In this document: piece by piece, positions 12,745 through 32,992 of the stretch | How positions within the stretch are numbered: the first letter of the stretch is position 1 | Layout of the letters: each line of letters opens with the position of its first letter | DNA from: Brucella rhizosphaerae | Lineage (GTDB): Bacteria > Pseudomonadota > Alphaproteobacteria > Rhizobiales > Rhizobiaceae | Length of the DNA: 64,000 bases | Direction of reading: 5' to 3' | Assembly: GCF_002252475.1 (NCBI RefSeq) | Contig: NZ_NNRK01000025.1 | Span: forward strand, 1 to 64,000 | Program-made: the position numbers and the translations under genes | The notes under the pieces: model-generated | What the model saw: the letters and a program-made list of their open reading frames with translations, nothing else | The model's database searches: none | What the model was told of the DNA's origin: nothing

Positions 12745-12765
12745 TAATGAAATTTAATTCCAAAT
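12745..12765. promoter_or_regulatory. Candidate IclR-family operator, copy 1
   Basis: A 21-bp AT-rich site with core TGAAATTTAATTCCA. It matches the perfect palindrome at 32972-32992 at 17 of 21 positions. It lies about 42 bases upstream of the acid sugar kinase start. The pattern resembles the KdgR box known from enterobacteria (arms AAATGAAA / TTTCATTT). Assignment to the IclR protein at 32085-32918 is inference. Confidence 0.5.
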
Positions 12766-12812
12766 AATTATCATTTTGATAGACCACGTCAATTGCTGGG
12801 ATTATGAAGTTG

Positions 12813-12910
12813 GAGCGCATCTCGAAAAGTGTGGAACGGTTTTCAGAAAAGATGTGCGTGAAAACAAACAAACTGAGCGCTGATCTGATTTAATCAGATC
12901 GAAACGCGCT
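12813..12910. repeat. Dispersed palindromic intergenic repeat, copy A
   Basis: About 98 bases that match the element at 60926-61023 over nearly the whole length. Shared blocks include GAGCGCATC, CGAAAAGTGTG, AGCGCTGATCTGAT and ATCAGATCGAA. The element contains a hairpin (GATCTGATTTAATCAGATC) near its right end. It lies between the divergent kinase and aldolase genes. It is likely a family of short non-coding repeats spread through this genome group. Confidence 0.75.
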
Positions 12911-12984
12911 CTGGTGGATTGAATTTAGCGTTTGAATCCCGACTGACATACATGCTGTTTCAAACGTCAAATTCAATCCACCAG
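12911..12984. repeat. Large inverted repeat (28-bp arms) upstream of the class II aldolase
   Basis: Left arm 12911-12938 and right arm 12957-12984 match at 25 of 28 positions with an 18-base loop. The outer 16 bases (CTGGTGGATTGAATTT) are perfect. It directly abuts repeat copy A, so the two may form one composite mobile or structural element. No open reading frame is inside it. The rest of the 12703-13025 gap shows only the operator candidate and these repeats. Confidence 0.85.
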
Positions 12985-13025
12985 ACATCATCAAAAAATC
13001 TTGGTTGCCAACAGATGGGGAATGA

Positions 13026-13688
13026 ATGATGCCAACCGATTACGATCAGAACCTTACCGCGCGTCACGCTATTGTGGATGCGATGCGCCATATGGAAAAC
13101 AAGGGTTTTAATCACGGTAGCAGCGGCAATATCAGCATTCGGGAGGGCGAACATGTCTGGGTGACGCCGACCGGTGCCACATCGCTTATGAAGCCCGAAG
13201 ACATGAGCCTTGTGTCTGTGGAAGGCGAGCATCTGGCGGGCAGGGTTCCCTCGAGCGAATGGCGCATTCACACAGAGATTATGCGCAATCATCCCGAGGC
13301 AGGAGCCGTCATTCACTCCCATGCAGATAATTGCGTTGCACTTTCGTGCCTGCGGAAACCATTGCCAGCGTTCCATTACATGATCGCTTCTTTTGGAGGG
13401 AACGAAGTTCCCTGCGCTGATTATCGGGTGTTCGGGTCCGACGCTCTGGCCTATGAAATCGTTCGTGCTATGGGCAATCATCGCGCCTGTCTGATGGCTA
13501 GTCACGGGATGGTCGTGTGGGGTCGGGATATGGCTCACGCAACGCTTCTGGCAGAAAAGCTCGAAACTCTGGCGCGTCAGTATATTTTGGCTTGTCAGAT
13601 CGGTGACCCGGCTATCCTGAGCGCCGATGAGCTTGATGAAGTACGTGCACGCTATGGATATTATGGCAGCAAGCCGATGCCGCGTTGA
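13026..13688 (+). CDS. Class II aldolase/adducin family protein (OtnC-like)
   Basis: A 220-residue metal-dependent aldolase or decarboxylase. Family motifs are GNISIREG, TPTGATS, the acid SSEWRIHTEI, the zinc-ligand histidines in VIHSHADN and the third histidine in LMASHGMVVWG. Length fits fuculose-1-phosphate aldolase and 3-oxo-tetronate 4-phosphate decarboxylase (about 215). Paired with the DUF1537 kinase, it would decarboxylate a phosphorylated 3-oxo-tetronate to a triose phosphate; the dehydrogenase and isomerase of that pathway are not adjacent. A strong terminator follows at 13698-13736. Confidence 0.9.
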   Translation: MMPTDYDQNLTARHAIVDAMRHMENKGFNHGSSGNISIREGEHVWVTPTGATSLMKPEDMSLVSVEGEHLAGRVPSSEWRIHTEIMRNHPEAGAVIHSHADNCVALSCLRKPLPAFHYMIASFGGNEVPCADYRVFGSDALAYEIVRAMGNHRACLMASHGMVVWGRDMAHATLLAEKLETLARQYILACQIGDPAILSADELDEVRARYGYYGSKPMPR

Positions 13689-13697
13689 CCGGCGGTC

Positions 13698-13736
13698 AAC
13701 CAGGCCCGAATGAGATATTCGGGCCTGGTTGTTTTA
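13698..13736. terminator. Bidirectional rho-independent terminator
   Basis: A 14-bp perfect stem (AACCAGGCCCGAAT / ATTCGGGCCTGGTT) with a five-base loop, followed by GTTTT on the plus strand. It sits between the convergent class II aldolase and the dimethylformamidase-like gene. Confidence 0.92.
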
Positions 13737-13740
13737 TCAA

Positions 13741-15420: not shown

Positions 15421-15461
15421 TTCGGACTTCCTCCTTCAATCACAAATTCTCTGATGGCTGT

Positions 15462-16172
15462 TCAGTACGAACGATCACTTGCGAGCTGGTCTTCGCCGGG
15501 ATTTGCTTGTTCGTATTGCTGAAGGCGCTTCAAAAGTGCGGCGCCTCCTTCGATGAGGTCGAGTTGAACGGCGAGACGCAAGGCGTAACTATCGCGATTA
15601 CTCAAAGCCGTGATGATGTTCTCGTGCTGGTGACGCCCCGGATAGGTTGGCTTTGCTGCGGGGTAAAGTTCGGATACGAGCGGGCCGACCCTGATCCAGA
15701 GGCTTTCAAGCACATCGATAAGATGCGCCATGCCGCTTTGCTTATAGAGCGCAAAATGGAAATCCGAGTTGATCTGCAAGGCTACTGCCCAATCCCCGGT
15801 GCGCTCAGCTTCGGTCAGCTCACAATGGATCGCCTCCAGCTTTGCGATGGTCTCGTCTGTGATATTCGTCAGTGCGTGTTCCGCAGCCAGTGGTTCAAGG
15901 ACGAGCCGCATTGCGCGGATTTCCTTGTACTCAGCCAGGCTCAGACGCCGCACACGAATGTAGAAACGCGGCTTAATTTCAATCGCGCCTTCGCGTGACA
16001 ATTGCATCAGCGCTTCGCGAACAGGCGTTTCCGACGTGCCCAATGACTGTGCCAGTTGGCGAACCTTGAACCGCTGATGTGGTTTGAATTGTGCGCGCAG
16101 CAGTCCTGATTTGAGCTGCTGGTACACAATGTCAGAAAGGTTGTCCCGGTCGTCGCTTGCCTGTTCGCTCAC
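15462..16172 (-). CDS. GntR-family (FCD-type) transcriptional regulator
   Basis: A 236-residue FadR/VanR-type repressor. The winged HTH is at about residues 10-78 (VRQLAQSLGTSETPVREALM) and the all-helical FCD ligand domain at about 85-215 with the metal-binding D/H pattern (DFHFALYKQSG, RHQHENII). The GTG start is supported by AAGGACAAAGC. It lies between the aminotransferase and the DMFase-like gene. It is strikingly similar to the regulator at 21623-22351, including identical recognition-helix residues, so the two may bind the same sites. The TGATATATCA palindromes at 17481 and 17671 are the candidate operators. Confidence 0.93.
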   Translation of the reverse strand: MSEQASDDRDNLSDIVYQQLKSGLLRAQFKPHQRFKVRQLAQSLGTSETPVREALMQLSREGAIEIKPRFYIRVRRLSLAEYKEIRAMRLVLEPLAAEHALTNITDETIAKLEAIHCELTEAERTGDWAVALQINSDFHFALYKQSGMAHLIDVLESLWIRVGPLVSELYPAAKPTYPGRHQHENIITALSNRDSYALRLAVQLDLIEGGAALLKRLQQYEQANPGEDQLASDRSY

Positions 16173-16181
16173 GCTTTGTCC

Positions 16182-17432
16182 TTATCTGGTGGAGATTGCC
16201 CTGAAGGCATCCTCCGTTCGGGACAAGGCATCGTCGATTACTGCATCCGTGTGCGCGCAGGAGATGAACATATTGTGCTTGTGGTGCAGATAGACGCCAC
16301 GGTTTAAAGCTTCCCGACAGAAGCGAGCGCCAAGTTGCGCATCGGTGTCGCCGACGAACTGCACGAGAGGCATTGCGGCAGGTCCGGTTTGCAGAAGCTC
16401 AAATCCGTGAGCGCGGGCTTGTGCATCCAGTCCATTGCGCAGGCGTTCGCCCGCATGTTTCATGAGCGCAGGGCCATCAATCCGCTTTAGTTCCTTAATG
16501 GTCGCAACTGCGGCAGCCATGGATGCTCCCGCATACCAGAACGAGCCGGTCATGTAAGCCTGTCCCGCTGCTTCGCGAAAGCGGTTGGTGCCAGTAATGG
16601 CTGCAAGCGAATAACCATTGGCAATTGCTTTGGAATAGGCAGCCAGATCCGGCTCTACGCCGGTGCCACGCCAGCTTCCGCCAAGATCGATGCGGAAGCC
16701 ACCACGAACGTCGTCGAGAATGAGTGCTGCACCCGCTGCATCGCACAATGCGCGCGCTGTCTTCGCAAATTCAGATGTCGGGAGTTCCTGGGGGATAGCA
16801 AGATCGTGCTTGAAAGCAGAAACAATGATTGCAGCCAGATCATCGCCGGCTTGTTTGGCTGCCGCTATCAGGCTTTCAACATCGTTATAAACATAGTGGA
16901 TGAGATGCGCGCGATCTTCCGCCGTCACGCCAATTATCGATGGTGTGCACCATGGCACAGCGCCGTGATAAGCGCCTTTGGCAACCAGTACCTTGCGGCG
17001 CTTGGTGGCACCACGTGCAATGGTAACACAGTTGGTCGTGGCATCCGTTCCGTTCTTCTGAAGCAATGCCCAATCTGCATGTGGCACTGTCTCAACGAGC
17101 AGTTCTGCAAGTTCTACTGCATGGGCCGTCGGGCCGTTGAGGCAGTCGCCCGCCTGTATCTGGCTGAGCGCTGCAGCATCCACAAGCGCGTTGCGATGGC
17201 CCAGTATGATTGGCCCCCATGCACACATGAAATCGATATAGCTGCTGCCATTGACGTCTGTCACATGGGCACCTTCACCAGACGCAAAATACTGAGGGTA
17301 GCCCTCCGGGAGAGATGCGGCGCGTTGATGTCCCCACATGCCGTTGGGGATGACGCGTTCGGCGCGCTCGCGCAGCTCGGCGTCGAGATTTTGGGCGCTC
17401 AAGGTTTGGGCCGAAGTGGAATGCGCATGCAT
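16182..17432 (-). CDS. Glutamate-1-semialdehyde-aminomutase-like class III aminotransferase
   Basis: A 416-residue fold-type I PLP enzyme closest in layout to the HemL-like group. The PLP lysine is in AYSKAIANGYSLAAI, the aspartate in LILDDVRGGFR, and NGTDATTNCVTIAR binds the phosphate. The start at 17432 is chosen because GGGAGACAACC directly precedes that ATG; the longer GTG start at 17471 has no good site. HemL-like proteins in catabolic operons are usually omega-amino acid or diamine aminotransferases rather than haem enzymes. It is the first gene of a three-gene operon and diverges from the polyamine-type transporter. Confidence 0.88.
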   Translation of the reverse strand: MHAHSTSAQTLSAQNLDAELRERAERVIPNGMWGHQRAASLPEGYPQYFASGEGAHVTDVNGSSYIDFMCAWGPIILGHRNALVDAAALSQIQAGDCLNGPTAHAVELAELLVETVPHADWALLQKNGTDATTNCVTIARGATKRRKVLVAKGAYHGAVPWCTPSIIGVTAEDRAHLIHYVYNDVESLIAAAKQAGDDLAAIIVSAFKHDLAIPQELPTSEFAKTARALCDAAGAALILDDVRGGFRIDLGGSWRGTGVEPDLAAYSKAIANGYSLAAITGTNRFREAAGQAYMTGSFWYAGASMAAAVATIKELKRIDGPALMKHAGERLRNGLDAQARAHGFELLQTGPAAMPLVQFVGDTDAQLGARFCREALNRGVYLHHKHNMFISCAHTDAVIDDALSRTEDAFRAISTR

Positions 17433-17480
17433 TGGTTGTCTCCCATTTGACGACGTTTTTACGCTCGTCACGTCGAATTA

Positions 17481-17490
17481 TGATATATCA
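17481..17490. promoter_or_regulatory. Candidate GntR operator TGATATATCA, aminotransferase side
   Basis: A perfect 10-bp palindrome 49 bases upstream of the aminotransferase start. The identical sequence occurs at 17671-17680 on the transporter side of the same 311-base divergent gap. The rest of this gap (17433-17743) is AT-rich and holds no gene. Confidence 0.55.
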
Positions 17491-17680: not shown

Positions 17681-17743
17681 TTCTAGACAATGAAGTGGAA
17701 TGCGGGTTAAGCTCAGCCAACAACAAAAACATCAGGGGAAAGC

Positions 17744-21622: not shown

Positions 21623-22351
21623 TTAATCGGTATAGGCTGAAGATTTCAGATGCCGGATGAGGGCCGCCCCGCCCTCAAGAAGATCCATGCGGATTGCCAT
21701 GCGCAAGGCATAAGAGTCGCGGTCGCGCAGTGCTGCCAGAACGACTTCATGCTGGTGCTGACCGGCATAGGTCGGCATTGCGTGCGGGTAAAGCTCCGAA
21801 AGGATCGGACCGATGCGCATCCAGAGCGCTTCGAGCACGTCTATCAGATGCTTCATGCCTGACCGGCGATAGATGATAAAATGGAAATCGAAGTTAGTCT
21901 GCAAAGCCTCTGGCCAGTCGCCACTTTGTTCTGCGGCAATCAAACGGCGATGAAGGTCCTCTAGCTGGATGATGTCATCCTCAGTGATATGCGGTAGCGC
22001 GCGCTCGGCAGCCATGGGTTCGAGTTCAAGGCGCATCGCGCGAATTTCTTCGTACTCGTCGGCCGAAAGCTTGCGCACGCGGATATAATAGCGCGGCTTG
22101 ATCTCGATTGCGCCTTCACGGGAGAGCTGGATAAGCGCCTCACGAACCGGCGTTTCCGATGTTCCCAATGAACGCGCCAGATCACGAACCTTCAGCCGCT
22201 GCAAAGGCAGCAGCTGCGCCTGCATCAGTTGGGATTTGAGCGTGTTGTAAACGGTGTTCGATAGAACATCACCAGATTCTGCCTGAGCTTCTTCCGCTAT
22301 TACGTCATCGGTCTCAGACAAGTTGCCATCCGGTTCATTTACAAAGTTCAT
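21623..22351 (-). CDS. GntR-family (FCD-type) transcriptional regulator, second paralogue
   Basis: A 242-residue regulator with the winged HTH at about residues 25-95 (VRDLARSLGTSETPVREALI) and an FCD domain at about 100-230. The recognition helix and many stretches (REGAIEIKPR-YIRVRKL, LMQAQ..., LDVLEALWMRIGPI) match the GntR at 15462-16172 almost residue for residue, so they are recent paralogues. The ATG at 22351 follows GGAGCTGATTG. It converges on the PotD-like gene and probably co-regulates module D. The AT-rich site at 22395-22403 upstream suggests autoregulation. Confidence 0.93.
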   Translation of the reverse strand: MNFVNEPDGNLSETDDVIAEEAQAESGDVLSNTVYNTLKSQLMQAQLLPLQRLKVRDLARSLGTSETPVREALIQLSREGAIEIKPRYYIRVRKLSADEYEEIRAMRLELEPMAAERALPHITEDDIIQLEDLHRRLIAAEQSGDWPEALQTNFDFHFIIYRRSGMKHLIDVLEALWMRIGPILSELYPHAMPTYAGQHQHEVVLAALRDRDSYALRMAIRMDLLEGGAALIRHLKSSAYTD

Positions 22352-22394
22352 CAATCAGCTCCAATCGCTGGATGCATGGTTGTCCAGCAGTCGA

Positions 22395-22417: not shown

Positions 22418-23206
22418 TCAAATGCCCATATGTTTGCAGGCCAGAACCATTTGTGCATCCAACATTGGCACACCATTGATGATCCTGCATCCTTTTGCCT
22501 GAGCCAGTTGCAACAGGCGCGTCATAGGCGGATTGACGATGATATCCGATACAATCATGTCTGGTGAAACATCCAAGAGATCAATTGGAAGTTCGTCGTC
22601 ATCGGCCATGCCGAGCGAGGTTGTGTTGACGATCAGGTTGAATTGTCTACCGTGATCCGGTCCACTTTGAACTGTGCAGTCGGGATAGGCGGATTGTATA
22701 TCTTCGATGAGTGCTGCGGCTTTGGCCTGATTGCGATTGGTGACCCATAGAGACCGCACACCTGCCTTGGCCAGAGCAAAACCCACGGCACGCCCGGCAC
22801 CACCGGCACCCAGCATTAATACGGACCTATCTTTAGGGTCGATATTGTTGTTGCGCAGTCCTTCGATAAAGCCGGGACCGTCAATATTGTCCCCAACAAG
22901 ACGCCCGCCTTCTTCACGTCGAACAAAATTGACAGCGCCGATTTCCTGCGCGGCATCAGTCACTTCGTCGAGAAGGGGAATGATTGCGATCTTGTGCGGA
23001 ATAGTCACTCCGAACCCACTCACATTCCCGAGTTTGCGGATTGCATCAATGATCTGCGCAAGGTCATCTGGATGGACATGCAGCGGCACTGCCGCAGCAT
23101 TTTTGCCAGTTTTGCTGAAATAGGCGTTGAAGACATGGCTGGCCCGGACGTGACCGACCGGATGTGCCAGGATGAAGAGAATTTTGCTTTTTCCAGTGAC
23201 TTCCAT
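22418..23206 (-). CDS. Shikimate/quinate-dehydrogenase-like oxidoreductase (AroE family)
   Basis: A 262-residue NAD(P)-dependent enzyme of the AroE family. The catalytic lysine is K72 in VTIPHK and the aspartate D109 in GDNIDGPGF. The Rossmann loop is GAGGAGRA (about 133-140), with NRNQAK after beta-2, which favours NADP. The N-terminal substrate motif is degenerate: HPVGHVRASHVFN replaces the usual S-x-S-P that holds the shikimate carboxylate, so the substrate may differ from shikimate. The ATG lies three bases after the acyl-CoA dehydrogenase stop, so the two are co-transcribed. It is unlikely to be the housekeeping aroE. Confidence 0.87.
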   Translation of the reverse strand: MEVTGKSKILFILAHPVGHVRASHVFNAYFSKTGKNAAAVPLHVHPDDLAQIIDAIRKLGNVSGFGVTIPHKIAIIPLLDEVTDAAQEIGAVNFVRREEGGRLVGDNIDGPGFIEGLRNNNIDPKDRSVLMLGAGGAGRAVGFALAKAGVRSLWVTNRNQAKAAALIEDIQSAYPDCTVQSGPDHGRQFNLIVNTTSLGMADDDELPIDLLDVSPDMIVSDIIVNPPMTRLLQLAQAKGCRIINGVPMLDAQMVLACKHMGI

Positions 23207-23209
23207 GGT

Positions 23210-24352
23210 TCAGGCCCTCGTCATTTCGCGCGCGATAATGATCCGCTGAATTTGCGAAGTGCCCTCATAAAGACGGAAGAGCCGCACATCACGATAGAAG
23301 TGCTCAACCGCATAATCCTGCATATAACCGGACCCGCCGTGTATCTGGACAGCGTGGTCAGCAACGCGCCCCACCATTTCCGAACAATAAAGCTTGCAGC
23401 TTGCAGCTTTTCGGATGATGGCCGGGTCTTGATCGTCGAAAGCCCGAGCGGCATCAAGCACCATGCAGCGTGCCGCATAAGCCTCCGTACTCATGTCCGC
23501 GAGCATAGCCTGTATCATCTGATGCTCGGCGATAGGCTTGCCGAACTGAACACGACTTTTGGCAAAACCGACTGCCTCATCAATTAAACGCTCCGCCATG
23601 CCCGTGCATACGGACGATATGTGAAGTCTTCCGCGATTGAGCACTTTCATTGCCGTTTTGAAGCCGCGGCCTTCAATTCCGCCGATGATATTTTCTGCGG
23701 GTACCCGAACATTCTCCAGATAAACGTCACAGGTTTGAGTACCGCGTTGCCCCATCTTGTGATCGGCTTTTCCAACGCTCAGACCGGGCGAGTTGCGGTC
23801 AACCAGAAAGGCCGTGACGCCGGAAGGTCCAGCTTCGCCCGTTCGTGCCATGAGAGTGAAAACGCCAGCAATCGGCGCATTGGTTATGAAGCGCTTCACG
23901 CCATTGAGAATGTAATCATCGCCGTCCCTTACAGCCGTGGTTTTAACAGCGCCTGCATCGGAACCAACATCGGGTTCCGTCAAAGCAAAGGAGCCAATAA
24001 TCTCGCCGCTCGCAAGCTTGGGTAGCCAGTACTTTTTCTGGTCGTCGGTTCCGTCAACGATGATCCCCTGCGATCCGATGCCATTGTTGGTTCCGATGAC
24101 AGAGCGGAATGCCGGCGAGGTATAGCCGAGCTCAAATCCGACGAGGACTTCTTCCTCCATCGTCAAGCCGAGCCCATCATATTCTTCGGGGATTGACAGA
24201 CCGAACAGGCCCATTGCACGCATGTCATTGATGACATCATCCGGGATGCTGTTTGTCTCTTCCACCTGTTTTTCGGCAGGCATCAGTCGCTCACGAACGA
24301 AGCGTCTGATCGCATTTGTGAGTGATTGGAAGGTCTCCGGATCGCGGATCAT
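23210..24352 (-). CDS. Acyl-CoA dehydrogenase
   Basis: A 380-residue FAD enzyme that makes a 2-enoyl-CoA by alpha-beta dehydrogenation. Family motifs are FALTEPDVGSDAGAVKTTA (FAD-binding), YILNGVKRFITNAP, and the catalytic glutamate in RLYEGTSQIQRIIIAREM near the C terminus. The ATG at 24352 follows GAAGGGGCAACTT, better than the upstream in-frame start at 24382. It is divergent from the enoyl-CoA hydratase across 177 bases that include a KdgR-like palindrome. It supplies the first beta-oxidation step of module E. Confidence 0.93.
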   Translation of the reverse strand: MIRDPETFQSLTNAIRRFVRERLMPAEKQVEETNSIPDDVINDMRAMGLFGLSIPEEYDGLGLTMEEEVLVGFELGYTSPAFRSVIGTNNGIGSQGIIVDGTDDQKKYWLPKLASGEIIGSFALTEPDVGSDAGAVKTTAVRDGDDYILNGVKRFITNAPIAGVFTLMARTGEAGPSGVTAFLVDRNSPGLSVGKADHKMGQRGTQTCDVYLENVRVPAENIIGGIEGRGFKTAMKVLNRGRLHISSVCTGMAERLIDEAVGFAKSRVQFGKPIAEHQMIQAMLADMSTEAYAARCMVLDAARAFDDQDPAIIRKAASCKLYCSEMVGRVADHAVQIHGGSGYMQDYAVEHFYRDVRLFRLYEGTSQIQRIIIAREMTRA

Positions 24353-24460
24353 AAGTTGCCCCTTCACGCGTGATTTCAACAAAGATGAAACACGTCGCGT
24401 TTTGCAGAAATATCCTATTGCTAAGGGAATGTTTCATAGATTAAAGTTCGAAACAATATA

Positions 24461-24481
24461 AAATGAAATTAAATTCCATTT
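24461..24481. promoter_or_regulatory. Candidate IclR-family operator, copy 2
   Basis: A 21-bp palindromic site that matches the site at 32972-32992 at 19 of 21 positions (arms AAATGAAAT and ATTCCATTT). It lies in the divergent gap between the acyl-CoA dehydrogenase and the enoyl-CoA hydratase, 49 bases before the latter's start. Confidence 0.6.
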
Positions 24482-24529: not shown

Positions 24530-25312
24530 ATGACCGAGCTTACCGATGTCGTGATTGAGAGCCGTCCGGCGACTGGTGTGACCTTACTGGAAATCAATCG
24601 TCCAGAAGCACTCAACGCTCTGAATATGGATATCCGTCAAAAGCTTGCAGAAGCCGTTGACCGACTTGCAGCTGATCGCGAAACGCGGGTTATCGTCATT
24701 TCAGGCAGAGGCGGAAATTTCGCCGCTGGGTCAGACGTGAAAGTATTCGCGCAGACCGGTGCGGGAGAAATCCTGGCGCAGCGGCTTCACCGTTACTGGG
24801 AAAGTCTCGCCCGTTGCCCGAAGCCTGTGATTGCTGCCGTTGAAGGTTACGCGCTGGGTGGTGGATGCGAGCTTGCGATGCACGCCGATATTATTGTTGC
24901 ATCGCGGACTGCGAATTTCGGTCAGCCAGAAATCAAGCTGGGGCTTATGCCGGGCGCTGGTGGCACACAACGGCTTTTGCGAGCAATTGGTAAATACAAG
25001 ACCATGTTACTCACCCTGACTGGCGAAATGTTGTCGGCAGTGGATGCAGAAAGATATGGTCTTGTCAGTCGGTTGACGGATGAGGGGCAGGCGCTGGAGG
25101 AAGCTCTGAAGCTCGCCGGGAAAATAGCGCTGATGCCGCCGCTTGCCGCAGAGCAGATTAAAGAAGCGGTCATGCATGGTGAGGATGCACCTCTGGAAAC
25201 CGCTTTAAGACTGGAGCGCAAGGCGTTTCAGCTGCTGTTTGATACTGAAGACAAGCGCGAAGGCATTGATGCCTTCTTGTCCAAGCGTAAGCCTGAGTTC
25301 AAGGGGCGTTGA
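24530..25312 (+). CDS. Enoyl-CoA hydratase/isomerase
   Basis: A 260-residue crotonase-family enzyme that hydrates 2-enoyl-CoA. Both catalytic glutamates are present, E114 in GGGCELAMHADI and E134 in GQPEIKLGLMPGAGGTQ. The oxyanion-hole segment is FAAGSDV (usually FsAGaDi). GGGGAGAGG precedes the ATG. It starts the plus-strand operon and is followed within two bases by the 3-hydroxyacyl-CoA dehydrogenase. Confidence 0.95.
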   Translation: MTELTDVVIESRPATGVTLLEINRPEALNALNMDIRQKLAEAVDRLAADRETRVIVISGRGGNFAAGSDVKVFAQTGAGEILAQRLHRYWESLARCPKPVIAAVEGYALGGGCELAMHADIIVASRTANFGQPEIKLGLMPGAGGTQRLLRAIGKYKTMLLTLTGEMLSAVDAERYGLVSRLTDEGQALEEALKLAGKIALMPPLAAEQIKEAVMHGEDAPLETALRLERKAFQLLFDTEDKREGIDAFLSKRKPEFKGR

Positions 25313-25313
25313 G

Positions 25314-26828
25314 ATGGAGATGATGTCGCAGCGTTTTGGCCCCATCAATGTGGTCGGTATCGTTGGTGCCGGGATAATGGGTACTGGCATTGCCGAAGCA
25401 ATGGCTGCTGCTGATCTTAAAGTTTATCTGTTCGACCAGCTTCCCGGCAAAGCTGAAGCTGCGAAACAGGAGCTTTCAAAGCGTCTGTATAGCCGGGTTG
25501 AGCGCGGAAAAATCGAAGCGAGCAAAGCTGCTGGCATTCTGGATCTGATTGTCTCTATCGATGCCTTCAACGATTTGGCTTCGACCGATCTGGTCATCGA
25601 AGCCATCGTCGAAGATCTCGCGGTGAAGCGCGAACTGATCGCATCACTGGAAGCACATCTATCGCCGCAGACGATTATTGCAACAAACACATCGTCTTTG
25701 TCCGTCACCGCAATTGCTGGGAAAGCTGAAAATCCACAGCGAATAGCCGGGTTTCATTTTTTTAATCCCGTTCCGCTGATGCGGGTTGTGGAAGTGATCA
25801 AGGGTGCTCTGACAGATGATGCGGTCCTTGAGTGTCTGAAAGAACTGGCGGATCGGATAGGCCATCGACCCGTAATGGCCGCCGATACACCGGGGTTCAT
25901 CGTCAATCATGCGGGCCGCGCCTATGGCACTGAAGCACTTGCGATGATCCGCGAAAATATTGCCGATTTCACGACGATCGACGCTATTCTGCGTGATGCC
26001 GCAGGCTTCCGTATGGGGCCTTTCGAGCTTCTCGACCTGACAGGCCTTGATGTGTCTCATCCGGTCATGGAAGCGATTTACGGTCAGTATTATCAGGAGC
26101 CGCGTTATCGCCCGTCGGTGCTGACGCGCCAACGGCTCGATGCTGGCCTGCTTGGGCGTAAGAGTGGTCGGGGCTTTTATGATTATTCTGACGATTCAAA
26201 GCCTGTTGCGGCGAACAATACACAAGGTAGCCTGCCGAAATCTGTGACAATTATCGGAGATACACCCGAAAAAGCGCTGCATAAAGTTGCCGGGCTGGCG
26301 GGCGTTCAAATCAGTGATGATGCGAGTTCCAGTGCACTCGTTCTGATTGGTTTGATTGGTGATGATCTGACCTCGACAATCGTCCGCGAAGGCCTCGACG
26401 CTGCCAATGTCATTGGGTTTGATCCGCTATTCGGTATCGATAAGCATCGGACGCTGGTCGCTTCGCCGGGAGCGCGTGATGATACACGAGTGCAGGCTGT
26501 GGCTCTTGCGCAATCCGATGGTGTCAAAGCTTCGCTCGTCGAAGACACATGCGGAACGGTTTGCCAGCGCGTGTTGGCGATGATCGTGAATATTGCGGCC
26601 GACATCGTTCATCAGAACATTGCATCAGCAGATGATCTTGATGCTGCGGTGCGGCTGGGGCTCGGTTATCCGTATGGACCACTCGAATGGGGTGACAGGA
26701 TCGGTGCGGATATGATTGTCCGTGTTCTCGATCGCATTCATGAAAGAACCGGTGACCCGCGATATCGCGCCAGCCTATGGTTGCGCCGCAGGGCCGAACT
26801 GAAACTGCCATTGGCAGAATACAATTAG
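25314..26828 (+). CDS. 3-hydroxyacyl-CoA dehydrogenase (PaaH-like)
   Basis: A 504-residue NAD-dependent dehydrogenase. The Rossmann motif GIVGAGIMGTGIAEA is at about residues 15-29. The catalytic histidine is in RIAGFHFFNPVPLMRVVEVI and DTPGFIVNHAGRAYGTEA follows. Two 3HCDH C-terminal domains (about 190-290 and 405-500) give the PaaH-type length, longer than the single-domain 280-residue type. The ATG at 25314 is two bases after the hydratase stop. It oxidises the 3-hydroxyacyl-CoA before thiolysis. Confidence 0.94.
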   Translation: MEMMSQRFGPINVVGIVGAGIMGTGIAEAMAAADLKVYLFDQLPGKAEAAKQELSKRLYSRVERGKIEASKAAGILDLIVSIDAFNDLASTDLVIEAIVEDLAVKRELIASLEAHLSPQTIIATNTSSLSVTAIAGKAENPQRIAGFHFFNPVPLMRVVEVIKGALTDDAVLECLKELADRIGHRPVMAADTPGFIVNHAGRAYGTEALAMIRENIADFTTIDAILRDAAGFRMGPFELLDLTGLDVSHPVMEAIYGQYYQEPRYRPSVLTRQRLDAGLLGRKSGRGFYDYSDDSKPVAANNTQGSLPKSVTIIGDTPEKALHKVAGLAGVQISDDASSSALVLIGLIGDDLTSTIVREGLDAANVIGFDPLFGIDKHRTLVASPGARDDTRVQAVALAQSDGVKASLVEDTCGTVCQRVLAMIVNIAADIVHQNIASADDLDAAVRLGLGYPYGPLEWGDRIGADMIVRVLDRIHERTGDPRYRASLWLRRRAELKLPLAEYN

Positions 26829-26839
26829 GGAACCTTATC

Positions 26840-29017
26840 ATGGCCGAAAAAATTGACCTGAAACCGTCTGCGCCCTGGTATCGGCTCAATGTCACGGAAG
26901 ATGACTGGCGCGCTGCAAAAGCCGGTGATCTGCTGAAATGGTATAGCCAGATGAAGCTCATCCGGCGCTTTGAAGAAAAAATACTCGACTTTGAAAAAGC
27001 TGGACTTGTTCACGGGCCAGCTCATGCCAGTATCGGTCAGGAAGCCGCTGCAGTTGGCGCCATGTCGATGCTTGGCTCAGACGATCAGATCAATGGCACC
27101 CATCGTGCGCATCATCAGGTCCTCACAAAGCTGATCAACGCACAGACGCCATCAGATTTCGATATTCTTCAATCTGATTTTACCGACGACATGAATGATG
27201 CCGTCTATCGCCTGATGGCTGAGATCATGGGGCTTAATCCCGGATATTGCGGTGGGCGTGGCGGGTCCATGCATATGCGTGATGCAGCCTCGGGTATTGC
27301 AGGAACGAGCGCTATTGTTGGCGGCAATATTCCGCATGCCGCCGGTTATGCGCTTGCTGACAAGCTTCTTGGCAGAAAAGGCATATCGGTCGCTTTCTTC
27401 GGCGATGGTGCTTCGCTGCAAGGTGCCACTTATGAAGCGATGAATATCGCAGCACTTTACCGGTTGCCGGTCATTTTCTACGTCGAGAATAATCTCTACG
27501 CCGTGTCCACCCACATTCAGGATGCCACCCGCGAAACACGTATCGCATCGCGCGGTCCGATGCTCGGTTTTGCAGGCATTGAGTGCGACGGGATGGATGT
27601 TGTCGCCGTTCATCAGGCCATGCGCGATGCCTGCCGCATCATCGAAGAAGACGGCGGCCCTGTCGTCATCGAAGCGCAATGCTATCGTTATCTTCATCAG
27701 AGCGGCAGCAAGGCTGGCAGCGATTTCGGCTATCGCACGGGTGACGAAGAGGAAGAGTGGAAGCGTCGCGATCCGATTGCGCAGGCAGAGCGATGGTTAA
27801 AGGAACTCGGTATTGCAGGCGATGCCGAACTTGCCCAGATCGATGAAAAAGTCAGCGCTGCGGTGCAGGTTGCTGGCGGACGCCTGACAGAAGCTGCACC
27901 CGGCAGCAATGTGTTGCGTATCCCAGAGGCTTTATGGCCATCGCCGGAGAGCGTCGATGAAGGCATCCTTGGAGATGGCAAAGAATTTTCGGACGCCCGT
28001 TTTCGTGAAATAGAAGACTACTCCCCAGACGAGCTGGAAAAGGTACGTTTTGCGGCTGCCGCGTCTGATGCCCTTGGCCGGGCGATGGAGAAAGATCCCA
28101 CAATTATCGTCATGGGCGAGGATGTTCATCGCTTTGCCGGTGGTGTGAGCGGTTTCACCAAGAACGCACTTGAACAGTTTCCCGGTAGAGTTCTGGCGAT
28201 GCCGATTGCTGAAAATGGCTTTACGGGTGTCGCGTTGGGGGCAGCATTGCGCGGGCTGCGGCCTGTCGTAGAAATCATGTTTGGTGACTTCTGCTTCGTT
28301 GCAGCCGACCAGATCGCAAACGGCATCTCAAAAGTCCGGCACATGTTCGGTGATGGCTTTCCGGTGCCGATTGTCCTGCGCGTTCGTGTGTCGCCACACA
28401 CCGGCTACGGTTCGCAGCATTCGGGCGATCCATCGGCTTTGTTTGCCATGTTCCCGGGTTGGCGCGTCGTGTCACCAACCAATTCCTTTGACTATGTCGG
28501 GCTGATGAACAGCGCACTAAAGTCTAACGATCCTGTGGCCATCATCGAACATGTCGAGTTTTACCAGCGCGAGAGCCTCCTACCCAAGGATGATCGCGAT
28601 TATTGCATTCCCCTTGGAAAGGCGCGGATCGTCAGATCAGGTTCGGCATGTACCGTGCTTGCCACTTCGGTAATGGTGCAGGCCTCGGTTAAAGCTGCAG
28701 ATGAATCCGGTATTGATGCCGAGATTATCGACATGCGCAGCCTCGATATGACCGGCATCGACTGGGAGCTTATTGGCCAATCTATTGCGAAAACCAATCG
28801 CGTGGTGATTACCGAGCAGGTGGCGAGCGGGTTGTCTTTGGGACGGCATTGGGCCGCAGAAATCCAGCGGCGCTTCTTCAACGATCTTGATCACGAAATT
28901 CTTCATGTGACGGGCAGTCTGTCGTCGCCTGTGGTTTCACTGGTCTTGAATAAGGCGGCTCTCGGGTCGGCGGAAAAGGTTCGGGCGGCGCTGGAGCAGA
29001 TCACGCGTACCGCCTGA
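26840..29017 (+). CDS. Fused 2-oxoacid dehydrogenase E1 (alpha and beta in one chain)
   Basis: A 725-residue thiamine-diphosphate enzyme. The alpha part (about residues 1-380) carries the TPP motif FFGDGASLQGATYEAMN ... VIFYVENN near 185-217. The beta part (about 395-720) carries IIVMGEDVHRFAGGVSGFTK and MPIAENGFTGVALGAAL. In acetoin, branched-chain and pyruvate dehydrogenases these are usually separate genes, though natural fusions occur. It oxidatively decarboxylates or cleaves a 2-oxo compound and passes the acyl group to the E2 lipoyl arm; an E2 is encoded convergently at 30738-32042. No E3 gene is in the window, so a shared lipoamide dehydrogenase is probable. Confidence 0.92.
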   Translation: MAEKIDLKPSAPWYRLNVTEDDWRAAKAGDLLKWYSQMKLIRRFEEKILDFEKAGLVHGPAHASIGQEAAAVGAMSMLGSDDQINGTHRAHHQVLTKLINAQTPSDFDILQSDFTDDMNDAVYRLMAEIMGLNPGYCGGRGGSMHMRDAASGIAGTSAIVGGNIPHAAGYALADKLLGRKGISVAFFGDGASLQGATYEAMNIAALYRLPVIFYVENNLYAVSTHIQDATRETRIASRGPMLGFAGIECDGMDVVAVHQAMRDACRIIEEDGGPVVIEAQCYRYLHQSGSKAGSDFGYRTGDEEEEWKRRDPIAQAERWLKELGIAGDAELAQIDEKVSAAVQVAGGRLTEAAPGSNVLRIPEALWPSPESVDEGILGDGKEFSDARFREIEDYSPDELEKVRFAAAASDALGRAMEKDPTIIVMGEDVHRFAGGVSGFTKNALEQFPGRVLAMPIAENGFTGVALGAALRGLRPVVEIMFGDFCFVAADQIANGISKVRHMFGDGFPVPIVLRVRVSPHTGYGSQHSGDPSALFAMFPGWRVVSPTNSFDYVGLMNSALKSNDPVAIIEHVEFYQRESLLPKDDRDYCIPLGKARIVRSGSACTVLATSVMVQASVKAADESGIDAEIIDMRSLDMTGIDWELIGQSIAKTNRVVITEQVASGLSLGRHWAAEIQRRFFNDLDHEILHVTGSLSSPVVSLVLNKAALGSAEKVRAALEQITRTA

Positions 29018-29053
29018 TGGATTGATCATAAAAAGAGAAAAATGAGGAACAAA

Positions 29054-30670
29054 ATGAAAAATGGGAAAACGGGACTTAATCGCCTTCTAACTGTGAATTT
29101 CAAAAGCCTGATGATGGCAGCAACGCTATTGACTGCTGTACCGGCGGCCTATGCGCAAAATGCGGATTCATTGGTGATCGCGCGTAATATGGACATTAAC
29201 TCGCTCGATCCGCACAGGACCTTCTGCGACACATGCCAGATTTACGATTCGGCAGTCTATGAAGGTCTGTTGTCGCTGGACAAGGACAATAAGGTTATTC
29301 CTGTTCTTGCCGAAAGCTATGCAGCAAATGGTGATCAGACCGAGTTTACCTTCAAGATCAATGCGAAGGCCGTATTTTCTGATGGTTCGAAAGTTGAAGC
29401 CAAGGACGTCAAATGGTCGTGGGAACGCCTGAAGAATGTTAAGGGCAGCCCGTCGTTTCTCGCCGATACAATCGACTCCATAGAAACGCCTGATGAAGCA
29501 ACGGTTGTTGTAAAGACGAAGGCACCCAACTCGGAATTCTTCAATGTGGTGGCTTCGCCGTATTTCGGTATCGTAAACAGCAAGGTTGCGACCGCAGAAG
29601 CGAAGGCTGTCAACGGTGCGGATGCTGCCGAAAAGGATAATGCTGAGGCCTGGTTCCTGGCCAATTCGGCCGGTAGTGGGCCATTCGTTCTGGCTGCGTA
29701 TGAACCCAATTCCGAACTTCGTCTGAAGCGAAACGAGAAGTATTGGCGCGAAGCTCCGAAGGTTGCGGAGGTCGTGATACGTCAGGTGAAGGATGCGGTT
29801 GCACAGGCGCAGATGCTTGAAAATGGCTCTGCTGATATCGCAATGCAGATCGATCCCGAAACTGCCAAGACGATCCGCAATCCAGATGTGAAGATCGACT
29901 CCATTCACTCCTATAACTTTATTTACATCGCGCTCTCACCGGGTGCGAAGTCGAATGAAGTGCCGCTGACACCTGAAGTGCGCGAGGCAATTTCCACGGC
30001 GATTGATCGGGAAACATTGCTCGATTTCATGTTGGGTGACAAAGGCCAGTTGATTGGCGCAGCAATTCCGATCGGCTTTCCGGGTGGCGCGGACCACAAA
30101 ATCCCTGAATACAATCCAGACAAGGCCAAGGAACTGCTTGCGAAGGCAGGACATCCTGATGGCTTCAAGCTTGAAGCAACCTATCCGAACCTCAATGTTT
30201 ATGGTGTGGATTTCACGCAGATGATGCAGAAAATCCAGCAGGATCTGTCGAAGGTTAATATCAAGGTTGAATTGCAGCCGGTTTCTTTCGCCACCTGGCG
30301 TGAAAAGGTGAATGGAGACGGTACACCACTGACAGTGGTTTACTATGCACCTGATTTCTACGGCACATCGCAATATGTCGATGCTTTCGGTCTGGCTAAA
30401 GGCAGTCTGTGGGCCAAGCGCGCTGGTGAGGCACGCGATCCGTCATTCGTAATTGGCGACATCCAGCAGGTCATGGCCGATGCTCTTAAAGCGCCTGCCG
30501 ATGAGGCGGGTAAGGTCTGGTTTAAGGCTGGTGAGAAAATGGCCGCTGCCAATGTCATCATTCCGATGCTGAGCCCGGATGTCATTCTGGCTTACAACAG
30601 CAAAGTGAACGGTGTTCGCTATTCTGCCTGCTGCAACTTGCCATTGGCTGAAATTTCACTCGCCAAGTAA
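29054..30670 (+). CDS. Peptide-type ABC transporter periplasmic binding protein (DppA/SBP_bac_5)
   Basis: A 538-residue periplasmic protein of the DppA/OppA class. A signal peptide (MMAATLLTAVPAAYAQ, cleavage near residue 35) precedes the family start SLVIARNMDINSLDPHRT. The C-terminal portion includes ILAYNSKVNGVRYSACCNLP with a cysteine pair. The ATG at 29054 follows GAGGAACAAA; an upstream ATG at 29042 is also possible. It lies 36 bases beyond the E1 gene and feeds the DppBCDF-type transporter at 33078-37015. Related proteins bind dipeptides, opines and small acids. Confidence 0.92.
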   Translation: MKNGKTGLNRLLTVNFKSLMMAATLLTAVPAAYAQNADSLVIARNMDINSLDPHRTFCDTCQIYDSAVYEGLLSLDKDNKVIPVLAESYAANGDQTEFTFKINAKAVFSDGSKVEAKDVKWSWERLKNVKGSPSFLADTIDSIETPDEATVVVKTKAPNSEFFNVVASPYFGIVNSKVATAEAKAVNGADAAEKDNAEAWFLANSAGSGPFVLAAYEPNSELRLKRNEKYWREAPKVAEVVIRQVKDAVAQAQMLENGSADIAMQIDPETAKTIRNPDVKIDSIHSYNFIYIALSPGAKSNEVPLTPEVREAISTAIDRETLLDFMLGDKGQLIGAAIPIGFPGGADHKIPEYNPDKAKELLAKAGHPDGFKLEATYPNLNVYGVDFTQMMQKIQQDLSKVNIKVELQPVSFATWREKVNGDGTPLTVVYYAPDFYGTSQYVDAFGLAKGSLWAKRAGEARDPSFVIGDIQQVMADALKAPADEAGKVWFKAGEKMAAANVIIPMLSPDVILAYNSKVNGVRYSACCNLPLAEISLAK

Positions 30671-30690
30671 GCTGATTACCTGAAACAGAA

Positions 30691-30719
30691 AAGGCCGGAG
30701 AACATTCTCCGGCCTTTTT
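30691..30719. terminator. Bidirectional rho-independent terminator
   Basis: A 12-bp perfect stem (AAGGCCGGAGAA / TTCTCCGGCCTT) with a three-base loop and TTTTT after it on the plus strand. It ends the binding-protein operon and faces the convergent E2 gene. Confidence 0.93.
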
Positions 30720-30737
30720 CATTTTATGCCGATTTTA

Positions 30738-32042
30738 TCAGCGAACCGAACTTGCAAGTTCGCTGAGGATGCGCAGCGACAGGCTGCGTTTTTCAAGATG
30801 AGGCATGTGCCCACACGCTTCAAATGCATGGAGAGCGACATTATCGGGTAGATTGCGGCTATGTTTGAAAGGCAGGATGCGATCCTGTTTTCCGAAGATC
30901 ACGCGGACTGGTATCTCCAGCGAGGCAAGATCGTCTGTGATCGAAATTGTCTGCGTTCCATCGGCAAAAAAGCGCTTTGCAAAGGCTGCCATAGCGTCGC
31001 TCAGGTGCTGATTCTGTCGCTGTTGCACGACAGCAGAAATGAACGTTTCTGAGATAACGTCTTTTGCATGAACCAGCTCATGCAGCCATGGGGTGACGCT
31101 CTCTCTCGATTTGGCGTGCACGAAGTTCTCGACAAATCCCACGTTAATTTCAGGACCAAGACCTCCGGGTGCAAACAGCCCCAGAGCGCGTATGTCGATA
31201 TTGCCCCGGGTTGCCAGCCTTGCGCTGACGGCTGCGCCAAAGGAGTGTCCCACCATAATGGTTTCCGCGAGATTGAGCTGCCTGATGGTGGCTTCCACGA
31301 GGGCGGCTACTGCATCAAGGTCTGCAACCGCATCCAGTGGGGATGCTCCATGTGAGGGCAGATCGATGGCGAGCAAAGGTTGCTGCCATTGGCTTCCGGC
31401 GAAAAGTCCGCGCCAGTTGTTATGATCGGACGCGAAGCCGTGCAGAAGAACCAGCGGTATGCCTTCGCCCTTGCGCAACCAGACGGCGTTCAGGACTGTC
31501 TCGCCCGGAGAAAGGCTCTGTTTGCCGCTATTTTGCCGTGGCAGAACATTGCCAGTCTCCATCGCAGCAATGATATCTTTCTTTTGTATGCGCCCGCTCG
31601 GACCACTGCCATTGATCTGTGAAAGATCAATTCCGGCATCACCAGCGAGGCGTTTTGCAAGTGGTGTTGCAACGGCTCTGCCGGTCTGTGTGGTGTTTGA
31701 ACGGATATCCGGTGCCGACAGCGCTGAAACTTCATTTGTTTGAGCGATTTGTTTGGCAGTGGTTTCCGAGGCGGGTTTTGGTGAGGCGACGGACATAGCT
31801 TCGCCTTGTAAGAACAAGCTGGCAACACTCTGGCCAACGTCTATCTCATCGGAGGTCGACATCATGAGAATCTTCAGCGTTCCGTCGTGTGGGGCATCGA
31901 CTTCCACGACCGTTTTATCGTTGTCGATTTCAAACAGCAGCTGCCCTTGTCGGACAGCGTCACCGTCCTTTACATGCCAGCGTGAGATTGTGCCGGAATT
32001 GGTTTCCAGACTGACTTTTGGATATAGAATATCGGTGGCCAT
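30738..32042 (-). CDS. Acetoin-dehydrogenase-type E2 with C-terminal alpha/beta-hydrolase domain (AcoC-like)
   Basis: A 434-residue protein in three parts. The lipoyl domain (about 1-80) has the lipoylated lysine in FEIDNDKTVVEVDAP. The peripheral subunit-binding domain is at about 120-160 (ATPLAKRLAGDAGIDLSQI). Instead of the usual acyltransferase domain there is an alpha/beta hydrolase (about 190-430) with LLHGFASDHNNW, the nucleophile in MVGHSFGAAV, FGKQDRILPF and the histidine in ACGHMPHLE. This layout matches AcoC of acetoin dehydrogenases. It partners the fused E1 and shares an operon with the IclR gene. Confidence 0.9.
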   Translation of the reverse strand: MATDILYPKVSLETNSGTISRWHVKDGDAVRQGQLLFEIDNDKTVVEVDAPHDGTLKILMMSTSDEIDVGQSVASLFLQGEAMSVASPKPASETTAKQIAQTNEVSALSAPDIRSNTTQTGRAVATPLAKRLAGDAGIDLSQINGSGPSGRIQKKDIIAAMETGNVLPRQNSGKQSLSPGETVLNAVWLRKGEGIPLVLLHGFASDHNNWRGLFAGSQWQQPLLAIDLPSHGASPLDAVADLDAVAALVEATIRQLNLAETIMVGHSFGAAVSARLATRGNIDIRALGLFAPGGLGPEINVGFVENFVHAKSRESVTPWLHELVHAKDVISETFISAVVQQRQNQHLSDAMAAFAKRFFADGTQTISITDDLASLEIPVRVIFGKQDRILPFKHSRNLPDNVALHAFEACGHMPHLEKRSLSLRILSELASSVR

Positions 32043-32084
32043 GATATTTCCTGCAACAATCTGCTACGTCGCCGCTGGCGATGT

Positions 32085-32918
32085 TTAGGGTAAGGAAGTG
32101 TGTGAAAGCGCGTTTGTCTTGCCGATCAGCCGGTCTTGCAGCTCAAGGGTCAGCTGTTTGAGCGCTGGTCCGATTTCGGCATAGCAAACATCGCGTGGTG
32201 CAATGTCGGTTATGCCGCCGCAGGTGATCGCAACGAGCTGGGTGCCATCTGTCGGTCGAAACGGAATTCCAACAGCATTGATATAGCTGTACCAGTCGCC
32301 GCATGAGGCGACGAAGCCATCCTTTGCAAAGTCCTCAAGCGCTTGATTTGTCAGGCGGTGGATTTTCTCAGCATGTTCTGGTTCAGCAGCGATCATTTGC
32401 TCGAGAAGAATGTCGCGTTGCCCTTCTTCCATGCCGACATAATAGGAAAGCCCCATGGCCGTACGCCAGATCGGCAATCTTGAGCCTACATTCAGGCGCA
32501 GCGAGACTGGGTTTTCGGAACGGGCATTGGCGATATAGACCATTTCGCGCTGCTCACGCAGGCCCATGGCAACAGCAACCCCCGTTTTTTCCGCAAGCCT
32601 TCGCATCAGTGGCATGGCCATATAGACAACAGCGTTCGAGCTCAGTCCCGAATAACCAAGCGAAATTGTTGCAGGGCCGATGCTGTAGCGTCCCAGATTA
32701 TCGTCATAATTGAGGTAGCCGAGATTGACGAGTGTCAGCGTCAAACGCGAAATAGTAGCCTTCGGCAGTCCTGTACGGTCAATAAGCTCCTGATTTCCAA
32801 GAGAAATATCATTGGGGGTGAAGCTGCGCAAAATCTCCAGCCCTCGAACGAGGGCACTGGAAACCTGAGCGCTGTCTTTATCGAGGTCCACTGAACTGTG
32901 CTTCGCTCTTTTCTTCAC
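32085..32918 (-). CDS. IclR-family transcriptional regulator
   Basis: A 277-residue regulator with an N-terminal winged HTH (about 22-85; LGNQELIDRTGLPKATISRL) and a C-terminal IclR ligand domain (about 95-265). The GTG start is supported by GGAGACAAC. It heads a minus-strand operon with the E2 gene and diverges from the DppB-type permease; the gap carries a perfect 21-bp palindrome (32972-32992). That palindrome type is typical for IclR/KdgR members, and similar sites lie upstream of other module C and E genes. Confidence 0.94.
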   Translation of the reverse strand: MKKRAKHSSVDLDKDSAQVSSALVRGLEILRSFTPNDISLGNQELIDRTGLPKATISRLTLTLVNLGYLNYDDNLGRYSIGPATISLGYSGLSSNAVVYMAMPLMRRLAEKTGVAVAMGLREQREMVYIANARSENPVSLRLNVGSRLPIWRTAMGLSYYVGMEEGQRDILLEQMIAAEPEHAEKIHRLTNQALEDFAKDGFVASCGDWYSYINAVGIPFRPTDGTQLVAITCGGITDIAPRDVCYAEIGPALKQLTLELQDRLIGKTNALSHTSLP

Positions 32919-32971
32919 GTTGTCTCCTGGACGATGTTGTCGATTTCAGTTTGCAGGATTGCCGTTCCAGA

Positions 32972-32992
32972 AAATGAAATTTAATTTCATTT
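32972..32992. promoter_or_regulatory. Candidate IclR-family operator, copy 3 (perfect palindrome)
   Basis: Nine-base arms AAATGAAAT and ATTTCATTT around TTA, in the gap between the divergent IclR and DppB-type genes. Arms agree with the KdgR box described in enterobacteria. It lies 54 bases upstream of the IclR start, so autoregulation is likely if the assignment holds. Confidence 0.65.

What the first reader, a model, noticed from the sequence alone, without database searches (positions are those of the whole stretch)
12745..32992. One 21-bp palindrome upstream of three operons: a predicted IclR/KdgR-type regulon
Sites at 12745-12765, 24461-24481 and 32972-32992 share 17-19 of 21 positions pairwise, and the last is a perfect palindrome beside the gene for an IclR-family protein. 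The arms match the KdgR box of enterobacteria. The three sites precede the acid sugar kinase, the acyl-CoA dehydrogenase/enoyl-CoA hydratase pair and the IclR/transporter pair. This ties modules that look unrelated into one predicted circuit.
Basis: partly seen in the sequence, partly recalled or inferred. Interest (0 to 1): 0.7.

Follow-up and report, generated by a model that had tools for sequence, protein, structure and literature searches.

The report
IclR switch for a catabolic cluster
Three copies of one palindromic DNA site mark the promoters of a sugar-acid kinase/aldolase pair, a set of acyl-CoA enzymes and a transporter; similar sites stand at matching genes in related bacteria, so it is very probably the switch point of one IclR-type regulator for a catabolic pathway whose substrate is unknown.

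Summary
The three 21-mers are where stated, share 17-19 of 21 positions, and their 15-bp core TGRAATTNAATTYCA has only three exact places in the 4.9-Mb genome, all in this window. The IclR-regulon reading is strongly supported. All 9 genus genomes (of 35) with a close IclR orthologue carry the sites at the same promoters; G200 lacks site 1. Outside the genus, 9 of 10 homologues (53-63% identical) have a site with up to 2 mismatches at iclR or at the head of its operon, several also at acyl-CoA dehydrogenase; G069, and G215 within the genus, do not. Five plasmid loci chosen by protein alone gave 11 of 11 hits at the two predicted promoters. The modules are not unrelated: elsewhere they form one compact cluster. 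'KdgR-type' is not supported: the protein is far below that model's cut-off and the operator core differs. Where iclR faces a transporter or CoA-transferase gene, the layout core-N6-TTGACR-N17/18-CAATAN recurs in 20 of 21 loci, with the predicted iclR start inside the operator, suggesting autorepression. Binding, ligand and sign of control are inferred. New member of a known kind.

The parts
12745..12765 (.). operator 1, between the kinase (-) and class II aldolase (+) genes
   Evidence: present in 8 of the 9 genus genomes with a close orthologue (not in G200, where only residues 242-423 of the kinase are matched, about 27 kb from site 2)
24461..24481 (.). operator 2, between the acyl-CoA dehydrogenase (-) and enoyl-CoA hydratase (+) genes
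   Evidence: 9 of 9 genus genomes with a close orthologue; sites at acyl-CoA dehydrogenase, E1 or enoyl-CoA hydratase in other genera
32972..32992 (.). operator 3, between iclR (-) and the Opp-type transporter operon (+)
   Evidence: 9 of 9 genus genomes with a close orthologue, 7 genomes outside the genus (iclR facing transporter or CoA-transferase) and 5 of 5 plasmid loci
32085..32918 (-). IclR-family regulator (HTH_IclR + IclR_C), GTG start
30738..32042 (-). E2-like lipoyl/E3-binding/alpha-beta hydrolase protein (acetoin dehydrogenase E2 type), probably co-transcribed with iclR
   Evidence: 412.3 bits against cut-off 307, NF011457
33078..34091 (+). transporter permease, OppB-like; likely start ATG 33078 rather than the listed TTG 33015
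   Evidence: start chosen by eye
34101..37015 (+). transporter permease and two ATPases (OppC, OppD, OppF type)
37003..41054 (+). CoA-transferase III, aldehyde dehydrogenase, 3-oxoadipyl-CoA thiolase (above cut-off), downstream of operator 3
24530..30670 (+). enoyl-CoA hydratase, 3-hydroxyacyl-CoA dehydrogenase, fused E1 alpha/beta, family 5 solute-binding protein, downstream of operator 2
22418..24382 (-). acyl-CoA dehydrogenase and shikimate-dehydrogenase-like protein, downstream of operator 2
11443..12714 (-). four-carbon acid sugar kinase family protein, downstream of operator 1
13026..13688 (+). class II aldolase, divergent from the kinase across operator 1
32993..33024 (.). overlapping divergent promoters: + TTGACG 32996-33001, N17, CAATAC 33019-33024; - TTGACA 33021-33016, N17, CAATAT 32998-32993
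   Evidence: inference from conservation; one search finds the + promoter with an 18-nt spacer
24454..24459 (+). predicted -10 CAATAT of the enoyl-CoA hydratase operon, abutting operator 2
   Evidence: inference from conservation
12764..12792 (-). predicted kinase promoter TTGACG-N17-AATTAT, -10 abutting operator 1
   Evidence: inference

Best explanation
The IclR-family protein at 32085-32918 binds the three palindromes as a dimer (core TGRAATTNAATTYCA) and controls six transcription units read outward from them: kinase and aldolase; acyl-CoA dehydrogenase/shikimate-dehydrogenase-like and enoyl-CoA hydratase-3-hydroxyacyl-CoA dehydrogenase-E1-binding protein; iclR-E2 and transporter-CoA-transferase-aldehyde dehydrogenase-thiolase. 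Each operator covers the predicted +1 of one divergent promoter (kinase, enoyl-CoA hydratase, iclR) and stands just upstream of the predicted -35 of the other. The likeliest action is repression without ligand, including autorepression, lifted by a pathway metabolite; control of the outward promoters could instead be activation. The pathway probably imports a substrate through the Opp-type transporter and ends at 3-oxoadipyl-CoA. Shown: the sites, exclusivity of the exact core, co-inheritance, conservation and layout. Inferred: binding, dimer, operon extents, start points, sign, ligand, substrate.
For: Only 3 exact cores in 4.9 Mb, all here. 9 of 9 genus genomes with a close orthologue carry 2-4 exact sites; two or three of them stand at the same promoters, the fourth of G232 is elsewhere. 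A/T-centred exact sites occur in 1 of the other 26 genomes (Fisher p 1.4e-7, not corrected for relatedness). The kinase is found in the same 9 of 35. In the stretches around 11 more distant homologues, 12 of 19 hits with up to 2 mismatches fall in promoter zones making up 3.4% of 192 kb (binomial 1.1e-13); 9 of these 11 homologues lie beside a site or in an operon headed by one. In G092 iclR is on contig C4 and acyl-CoA dehydrogenase|E1 on C1, both with TGGAATTAAATTCCG. A matrix from 18 non-genus sites ranks the three window sites 1-3 (28.8-32.2 bits, next 12.7; best of 20 simulated 64-kb sequences 24.8, mean of their maxima 13.4). Held-out plasmid loci: 11 of 11 hits at the two predicted promoters, 5 of 5 loci. 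In those 5 and in G565 and G413 the kinase lies directly behind acyl-CoA dehydrogenase, under that operator; in the genus, where it is about 10 kb away, it has its own site 1. Fixed layout 20 of 21.
Against: No binding or expression data. G069 (51%) and G215 (55%) show no comparable site near iclR, although their recognition helix is the same; the helix is also alike in a 42% homologue, G082, so it does not single out this group. 7 of the 19 hits are outside promoter zones. Site 1 is seen only within the genus. G354, whose iclR faces acyl-CoA dehydrogenase, has a weak site and not the promoter layout. The fixed spacing to the outward -35 would also suit an activator. The 9 genus genomes are related to each other.
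Confidence: 0.78

Rival explanations
1. Dual regulator of the PobR/PcaU style: it represses its own gene but activates the outward promoters (transporter, acyl-CoA dehydrogenase, aldolase) when it holds its ligand, from a position near -50.
For: The operator centre lies 14 nt upstream of the -35, with N6 between core and -35 in 20 of 21 loci; the best of 8 matching NCBIfam models is PcaR/PcaU/PobR though below cut-off (110.0 against 284.75); the family includes repressors, activators and dual regulators (PMC8222616, introduction part 1 read). That PobR and PcaU combine activation with autorepression is recalled.
Against: The transporter promoter has a good -35 and a 17-nt spacing, so it should need no helper; the fixed spacing may follow from the overlap with the iclR promoter.
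Confidence: 0.27
2. Another regulator, such as one of the GntR/FCD proteins in the window (15462-16172, 21623-22354, 41095-42015), owns the sites.
For: Three GntR/FCD genes lie in the same window; clusters G493, G413 and G092 also show a hit to one.
Against: The stretches fetched for G309, G565, G334 and G403 show no hit to any of the three at E <= 1e-15 but do show sites; the palindrome has the arm pattern TGRAA-N5-TTYCA of IclR-family boxes. That iclR is in every cluster is no argument here, since it was the search query.
Confidence: 0.06
3. Chance AT-rich palindromes.
For: With 3 mismatches the core is as frequent as in shuffles; some C/G-centred exact copies in the genus read by eye as the first codons of a protein.
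Against: Exact copies, exclusivity in the genome, and sites at matching promoters in stretches of 58-69% G+C.
Confidence: 0.01

Closest known systems
E. coli IclR operator (TGGAAATNATTTCCA, PMC8222616 Table 1)
   Same: 15-bp A/T-rich palindrome, arms TGGAA/TTCCA, one free central base
   Different: inner bases AT-N-AT against TT-N-AA here; the protein is far below the IclR model cut-off (59.6 against 380)
KdgR box of gammaproteobacteria (RWWGAAACGNCGTTTCAKKA, same table)
   Same: GAAA/TTTC arms at the same spacing
   Different: core CGNCG against TTNAA; protein 56.9 against cut-off 275; no pectin genes among the proteins that I ran through family searches
Group 2 IclR-family motifs (TGRAACAN1-2TGTTYCA, PMC8222616)
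   Same: outer TGRAA/TTYCA arms and their order
   Different: inner ACA/TGT replaced mostly by ATT/AAT; whether this regulon is one of that paper's 181 groups could not be checked (supplements not available)
Clusters on Agrobacterium sp. T29 plasmid unnamed2 and Shinella sp. HZN7 plasmid pShin-08
   Same: most of the same genes, two operators (three sites in T29), same promoter layout at iclR
   Different: kinase and aldolase follow acyl-CoA dehydrogenase and have no operator of their own; acyl-CoA dehydrogenase faces E1; the hydratase and 3-hydroxyacyl-CoA dehydrogenase are one fused, distant protein; no thiolase seen in the HZN7 stretch
Bidirectional promoters of Warman et al. 2026 (PMC12825309; abstract and sections 4 and 19 read)
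   Same: divergent transcription from one overlapping stretch, so that only one polymerase should bind at a time
   Different: those share a -10 element; here the -10 of one direction overlaps the -35 of the other

Membership tests
IclR-family transcription factors | HTH_IclR and IclR_C domains | tested here: met
   PF09339 55.3 bits (cut-off 22), PF01614 56.4 bits (cut-off 24)
IclR-family transcription factors | direct binding to the palindrome | not testable with these tools
   needs a bench test
IclR group 2 motif | TGRAACAN1-2TGTTYCA | tested here: inconclusive
   outer arms met, inner triplets not (sites; consensus)
KdgR | NCBIfam equivalog NF011671 above cut-off | tested here: not met
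   56.9 against 275
KdgR | operator core CGNCG | tested here: not met
   window cores are TTTAA, TTAAA and TTTAA; no site listed has CGNCG
PcaR/PcaU/PobR subfamily | TIGR02431 above cut-off | tested here: not met
   110.0 against 284.75, the best of the 8 models that matched
E. coli IclR | NF008601 above cut-off | tested here: not met
   59.6 against 380
local catabolic regulon | similar site upstream of related genes in several genera | tested here: met

The most novel reading that the evidence does not exclude
The iclR|transporter region is a conserved direction switch: two inverted copies of an element resembling ATATTGACR, each read as -35 one way and as -10 the other way, make a near-symmetric promoter that can hold one RNA polymerase in either orientation, and the IclR dimer, sitting on the iclR start, lets polymerase bind only towards the transporter.
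Probability: 0.2. Interest if true: 0.55.

Novelty: new member of a known kind. Interest (0 to 1): 0.42.

Why it matters
It turns a window that looks like scattered catabolic genes into one defined regulon with a named operator, recognisable in other genera and on plasmids. That gives a handle for finding the substrate (which genes carry the site) and a clean, sequence-diverse example of an IclR-type operator fused to overlapping divergent promoters.

Tried and rejected
KdgR identity: rejected on model score and operator core. More sites in the own genome: 4 places with one mismatch, all on other contigs (L095 not checked for genes); the places with two mismatches were not followed. A site beside the partial kinase match of G200: none with up to 3 mismatches in 6 kb. 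Sites near iclR in G069 and G215: none convincing. Family of G092: 1 of 4 genomes has the homologue. Substrate and novelty by literature: the searches listed no paper that by its title or abstract treats this cluster or regulon; only PMC8222616 (abstract, introduction part 1, results, discussion), PMC12825309 (abstract, sections 4 and 19) and PMC12285266 (passages, not used further) were opened. The supplementary tables of PMC8222616 were not available, so the regulon may be listed there. A whole-genome matrix scan was not possible; pattern searches took its place. Structure prediction and structure search were not used.
Full report
What was claimed and what is there. The three 21-mers are at the stated places. 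Their common 15-bp core TGRAATTNAATTYCA has exactly three places in the 4,898,985-base genome, all in this window, and none for the reversed control. With up to two mismatches there are 60 places against 19 for the control; four of them have one mismatch: one inside a helicase-like ORF (L093), one at the first codons of an ORF (L092), one 87 bp upstream of an ORF that looks AraC-type by eye (L094), one not examined for genes (L095). In the window, with three mismatches allowed, the pattern is no commoner than chance, so the claim rests on the exact copies.

Where the sites lie. Each is in a divergent intergenic region: kinase (-) and class II aldolase (+); acyl-CoA dehydrogenase (-) and enoyl-CoA hydratase (+); iclR (-) and an Opp-type permease (+). 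To the right of site 2 are enoyl-CoA hydratase, 3-hydroxyacyl-CoA dehydrogenase, a fused E1 and a family 5 binding protein; to the left of site 3 iclR and an acetoin-dehydrogenase-type E2, to the right the transporter, a CoA-transferase III, an aldehyde dehydrogenase and a 3-oxoadipyl-CoA thiolase. Operon extents are inferred from order and strand.

Co-inheritance in the genus. Of 35 genus genomes, 10 have a homologue at E <= 1e-60: nine at 81-100% identity and G215 at 55%. All nine carry exact sites: three each in seven, two in G200, four in G232. Of the other 26, eight carry one to three exact cores (11 in all), of which one (in G219) has an A/T centre like the window's sites. Several C/G-centred ones, the fourth of G232 among them, read by eye as the first codons of a protein. 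The Fisher value of 1.4e-7 for A/T-centred sites (9 of 9 against 1 of 26) ignores relatedness. The kinase occurs in the same 9 of 35. In G200, whose cluster is broken into several frames, only residues 242-423 of the kinase are matched, about 27 kb from site 2; site 1 is missing there while sites 2 and 3 remain.

Footprint. In the alignments (8 genomes for site 1, 9 for sites 2 and 3) the 15-bp core is kept except that site 3 changes one half from TTTCA to TTCCA in four genomes and site 2 flips its centre in two, both within the pattern. The side of site 3 towards iclR and the side of site 2 towards enoyl-CoA hydratase drift; the other sides are conserved too, as promoters would be.

Other genera. 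A search of 394 family genomes gave 11 with a homologue at E <= 1e-65, nine of them outside the genus; G092 of another family came from the order search, where 26 of 199 genomes had a match at E <= 1e-30. I studied these ten and G215, eleven in all; the remaining matches were not examined for sites. With up to two mismatches a site lies directly at iclR in eight (G309, G413, G354, G565, G493, G334, G403, G092), and in G318 at the head of an E1-iclR-CoA-transferase operon; none is convincing in G069 and G215. Further sites stand at acyl-CoA dehydrogenase|E1 (G565, G334, G403, G092), in front of acyl-CoA dehydrogenase (G413, two sites 88 bp apart), at enoyl-CoA hydratase (G309), E1 (G493) and the binding protein (G413). 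In G092 iclR is on contig C4 and acyl-CoA dehydrogenase|E1 on C1, with the same 15-mer at both. Of all 19 hits in the eleven stretches around the homologues, 12 fall in the 3.4% that is promoter zone and seven do not. Over the same eleven whole genomes the one-mismatch pattern has 39 places against 1 for the control (sums mine), of which I assign 13 to clusters and 26 elsewhere; the 3.0e-20 uses a cluster share of 0.55% that I estimated. A matrix made from 18 non-genus sites puts the three window sites first, but those 18 were chosen by likeness to the window pattern.

Held-out test. Five plasmid loci were taken by protein similarity alone, five of the six best rows (H4 was not fetched): Agrobacterium sp. 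T29, Shinella sp. HZN7, Shinella sp. WSC3-e, Rhizobium sp. SSA_523, Sinorhizobium sp. RAC02. In about 204 kb, all 11 hits with up to two mismatches are at iclR|transporter or acyl-CoA dehydrogenase|E1. Of the 48 records the other 43 were not examined; those listed (H7-H25) are 35-45% identical. In all five, and in G565 and G413, the kinase lies directly behind acyl-CoA dehydrogenase on the same strand, so under that operator. In the genus it is about 10 kb away and has site 1. This fits one regulon whose parts were moved, each part keeping an operator; it is an inference.

Promoter layout. In 21 loci iclR faces a transporter or CoA-transferase gene across a site. Reading away from iclR, the core is followed by N6, TTGACR, 17 nt (18 in G493) and CAATAN in 15 of 16 and 5 of 5 plasmid loci; the exception is G092 (N4 and no such -10). 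G354, where iclR faces acyl-CoA dehydrogenase, lacks it; with it the count is 20 of 22. On the other strand TTGACA, 17 or 18 nt and CAATAT (CAATAG, CAACAT, CAACAA or CAACGT in most loci outside the genus) point to iclR, the -10 ending 3 nt from the core, so that iclR would start inside the operator. The conserved TG before CAATAN could instead be an extended -10 of the transporter promoter, and the iclR -10 is poor in most other genera, which is why I give the symmetric-switch reading only 0.2. Predicted promoters of kinase and enoyl-CoA hydratase likewise end with their -10 against the operator (by eye).

What kind of regulator. Domains are those of the IclR family. No NCBIfam model is reached: PcaR/PcaU/PobR 110.0 of 284.75, E. 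coli IclR 59.6 of 380, KdgR 56.9 of 275. The recognition helix reads GLPKAT(I/V)SR(L/I)T in most of the 18 proteins aligned (G334 has GLAGATVSRLT), including G069 and G215, so it agrees with a shared motif without proving it. The nearest solved chain is 5whm (169 bits; I recall, not from a call, that it is from Brucella abortus). The motif has the arm order of group 2 of PMC8222616 but a different inner part, nearest to the E. coli IclR box given there.

What the pathway may be. The thiolase is above cut-off for 3-oxoadipyl-CoA thiolase, and T29 also has pcaF, two shikimate dehydrogenases and class III and IV aminotransferases around its cluster. I infer a route from an imported, perhaps amino-bearing or cyclic compound to a six-carbon dicarboxyl-CoA; the acetoin-type E1/E2 could cleave a hydroxyketone. 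This is a guess from families; no call shows the substrate.

Verdict. The circuit is real with high likelihood, the KdgR label is not supported, and the finding is a new member of a known kind with an unusually clean operator-promoter layout.

Noticed in passing
window 24414-24439: A second block beside site 2 (acyl-CoA dehydrogenase strand CTATGAAACATTCNCTTAGCAATAGG) is nearly invariant in 9 genus genomes, and several other genera show a CTAAGCYG-like word near their acyl-CoA dehydrogenase or E1 operator; possibly a second regulator's site.
   Followed up: partly
window 12882-12900 and 12910-12985: In front of the aldolase gene lie a 19-bp palindrome GATCTGATTTAATCAGATC (also in G214) and a 27-bp inverted repeat with a 22-nt loop (absent in G214); the other six genomes aligned lack both (repeat read by eye).
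   Followed up: no
L125 25346 and 25730: In Agrobacterium sp. T29 the acyl-CoA dehydrogenase|E1 operator occurs twice, identical 21-mers 384 bp apart, on a plasmid typed conjugative.
   Followed up: no
L077, L078 (G200): The cluster of G200 is split into several frames and its regulator has an in-frame stop; decay or sequencing error (85% completeness).
   Followed up: no
L094 about 1469: A one-mismatch palindrome TGGAAATTAATTCCA lies 87 bp upstream of an AraC-like ORF in the same genome, perhaps the site of another IclR paralogue (one search lists 22 HTH_IclR matches over the cut-off, the best ten well above the rest).
   Followed up: no
window 41095-46845: A second transporter set with a C45 autoproteolytic acyltransferase and a GntR/FCD gene follows the regulon.
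   Followed up: no
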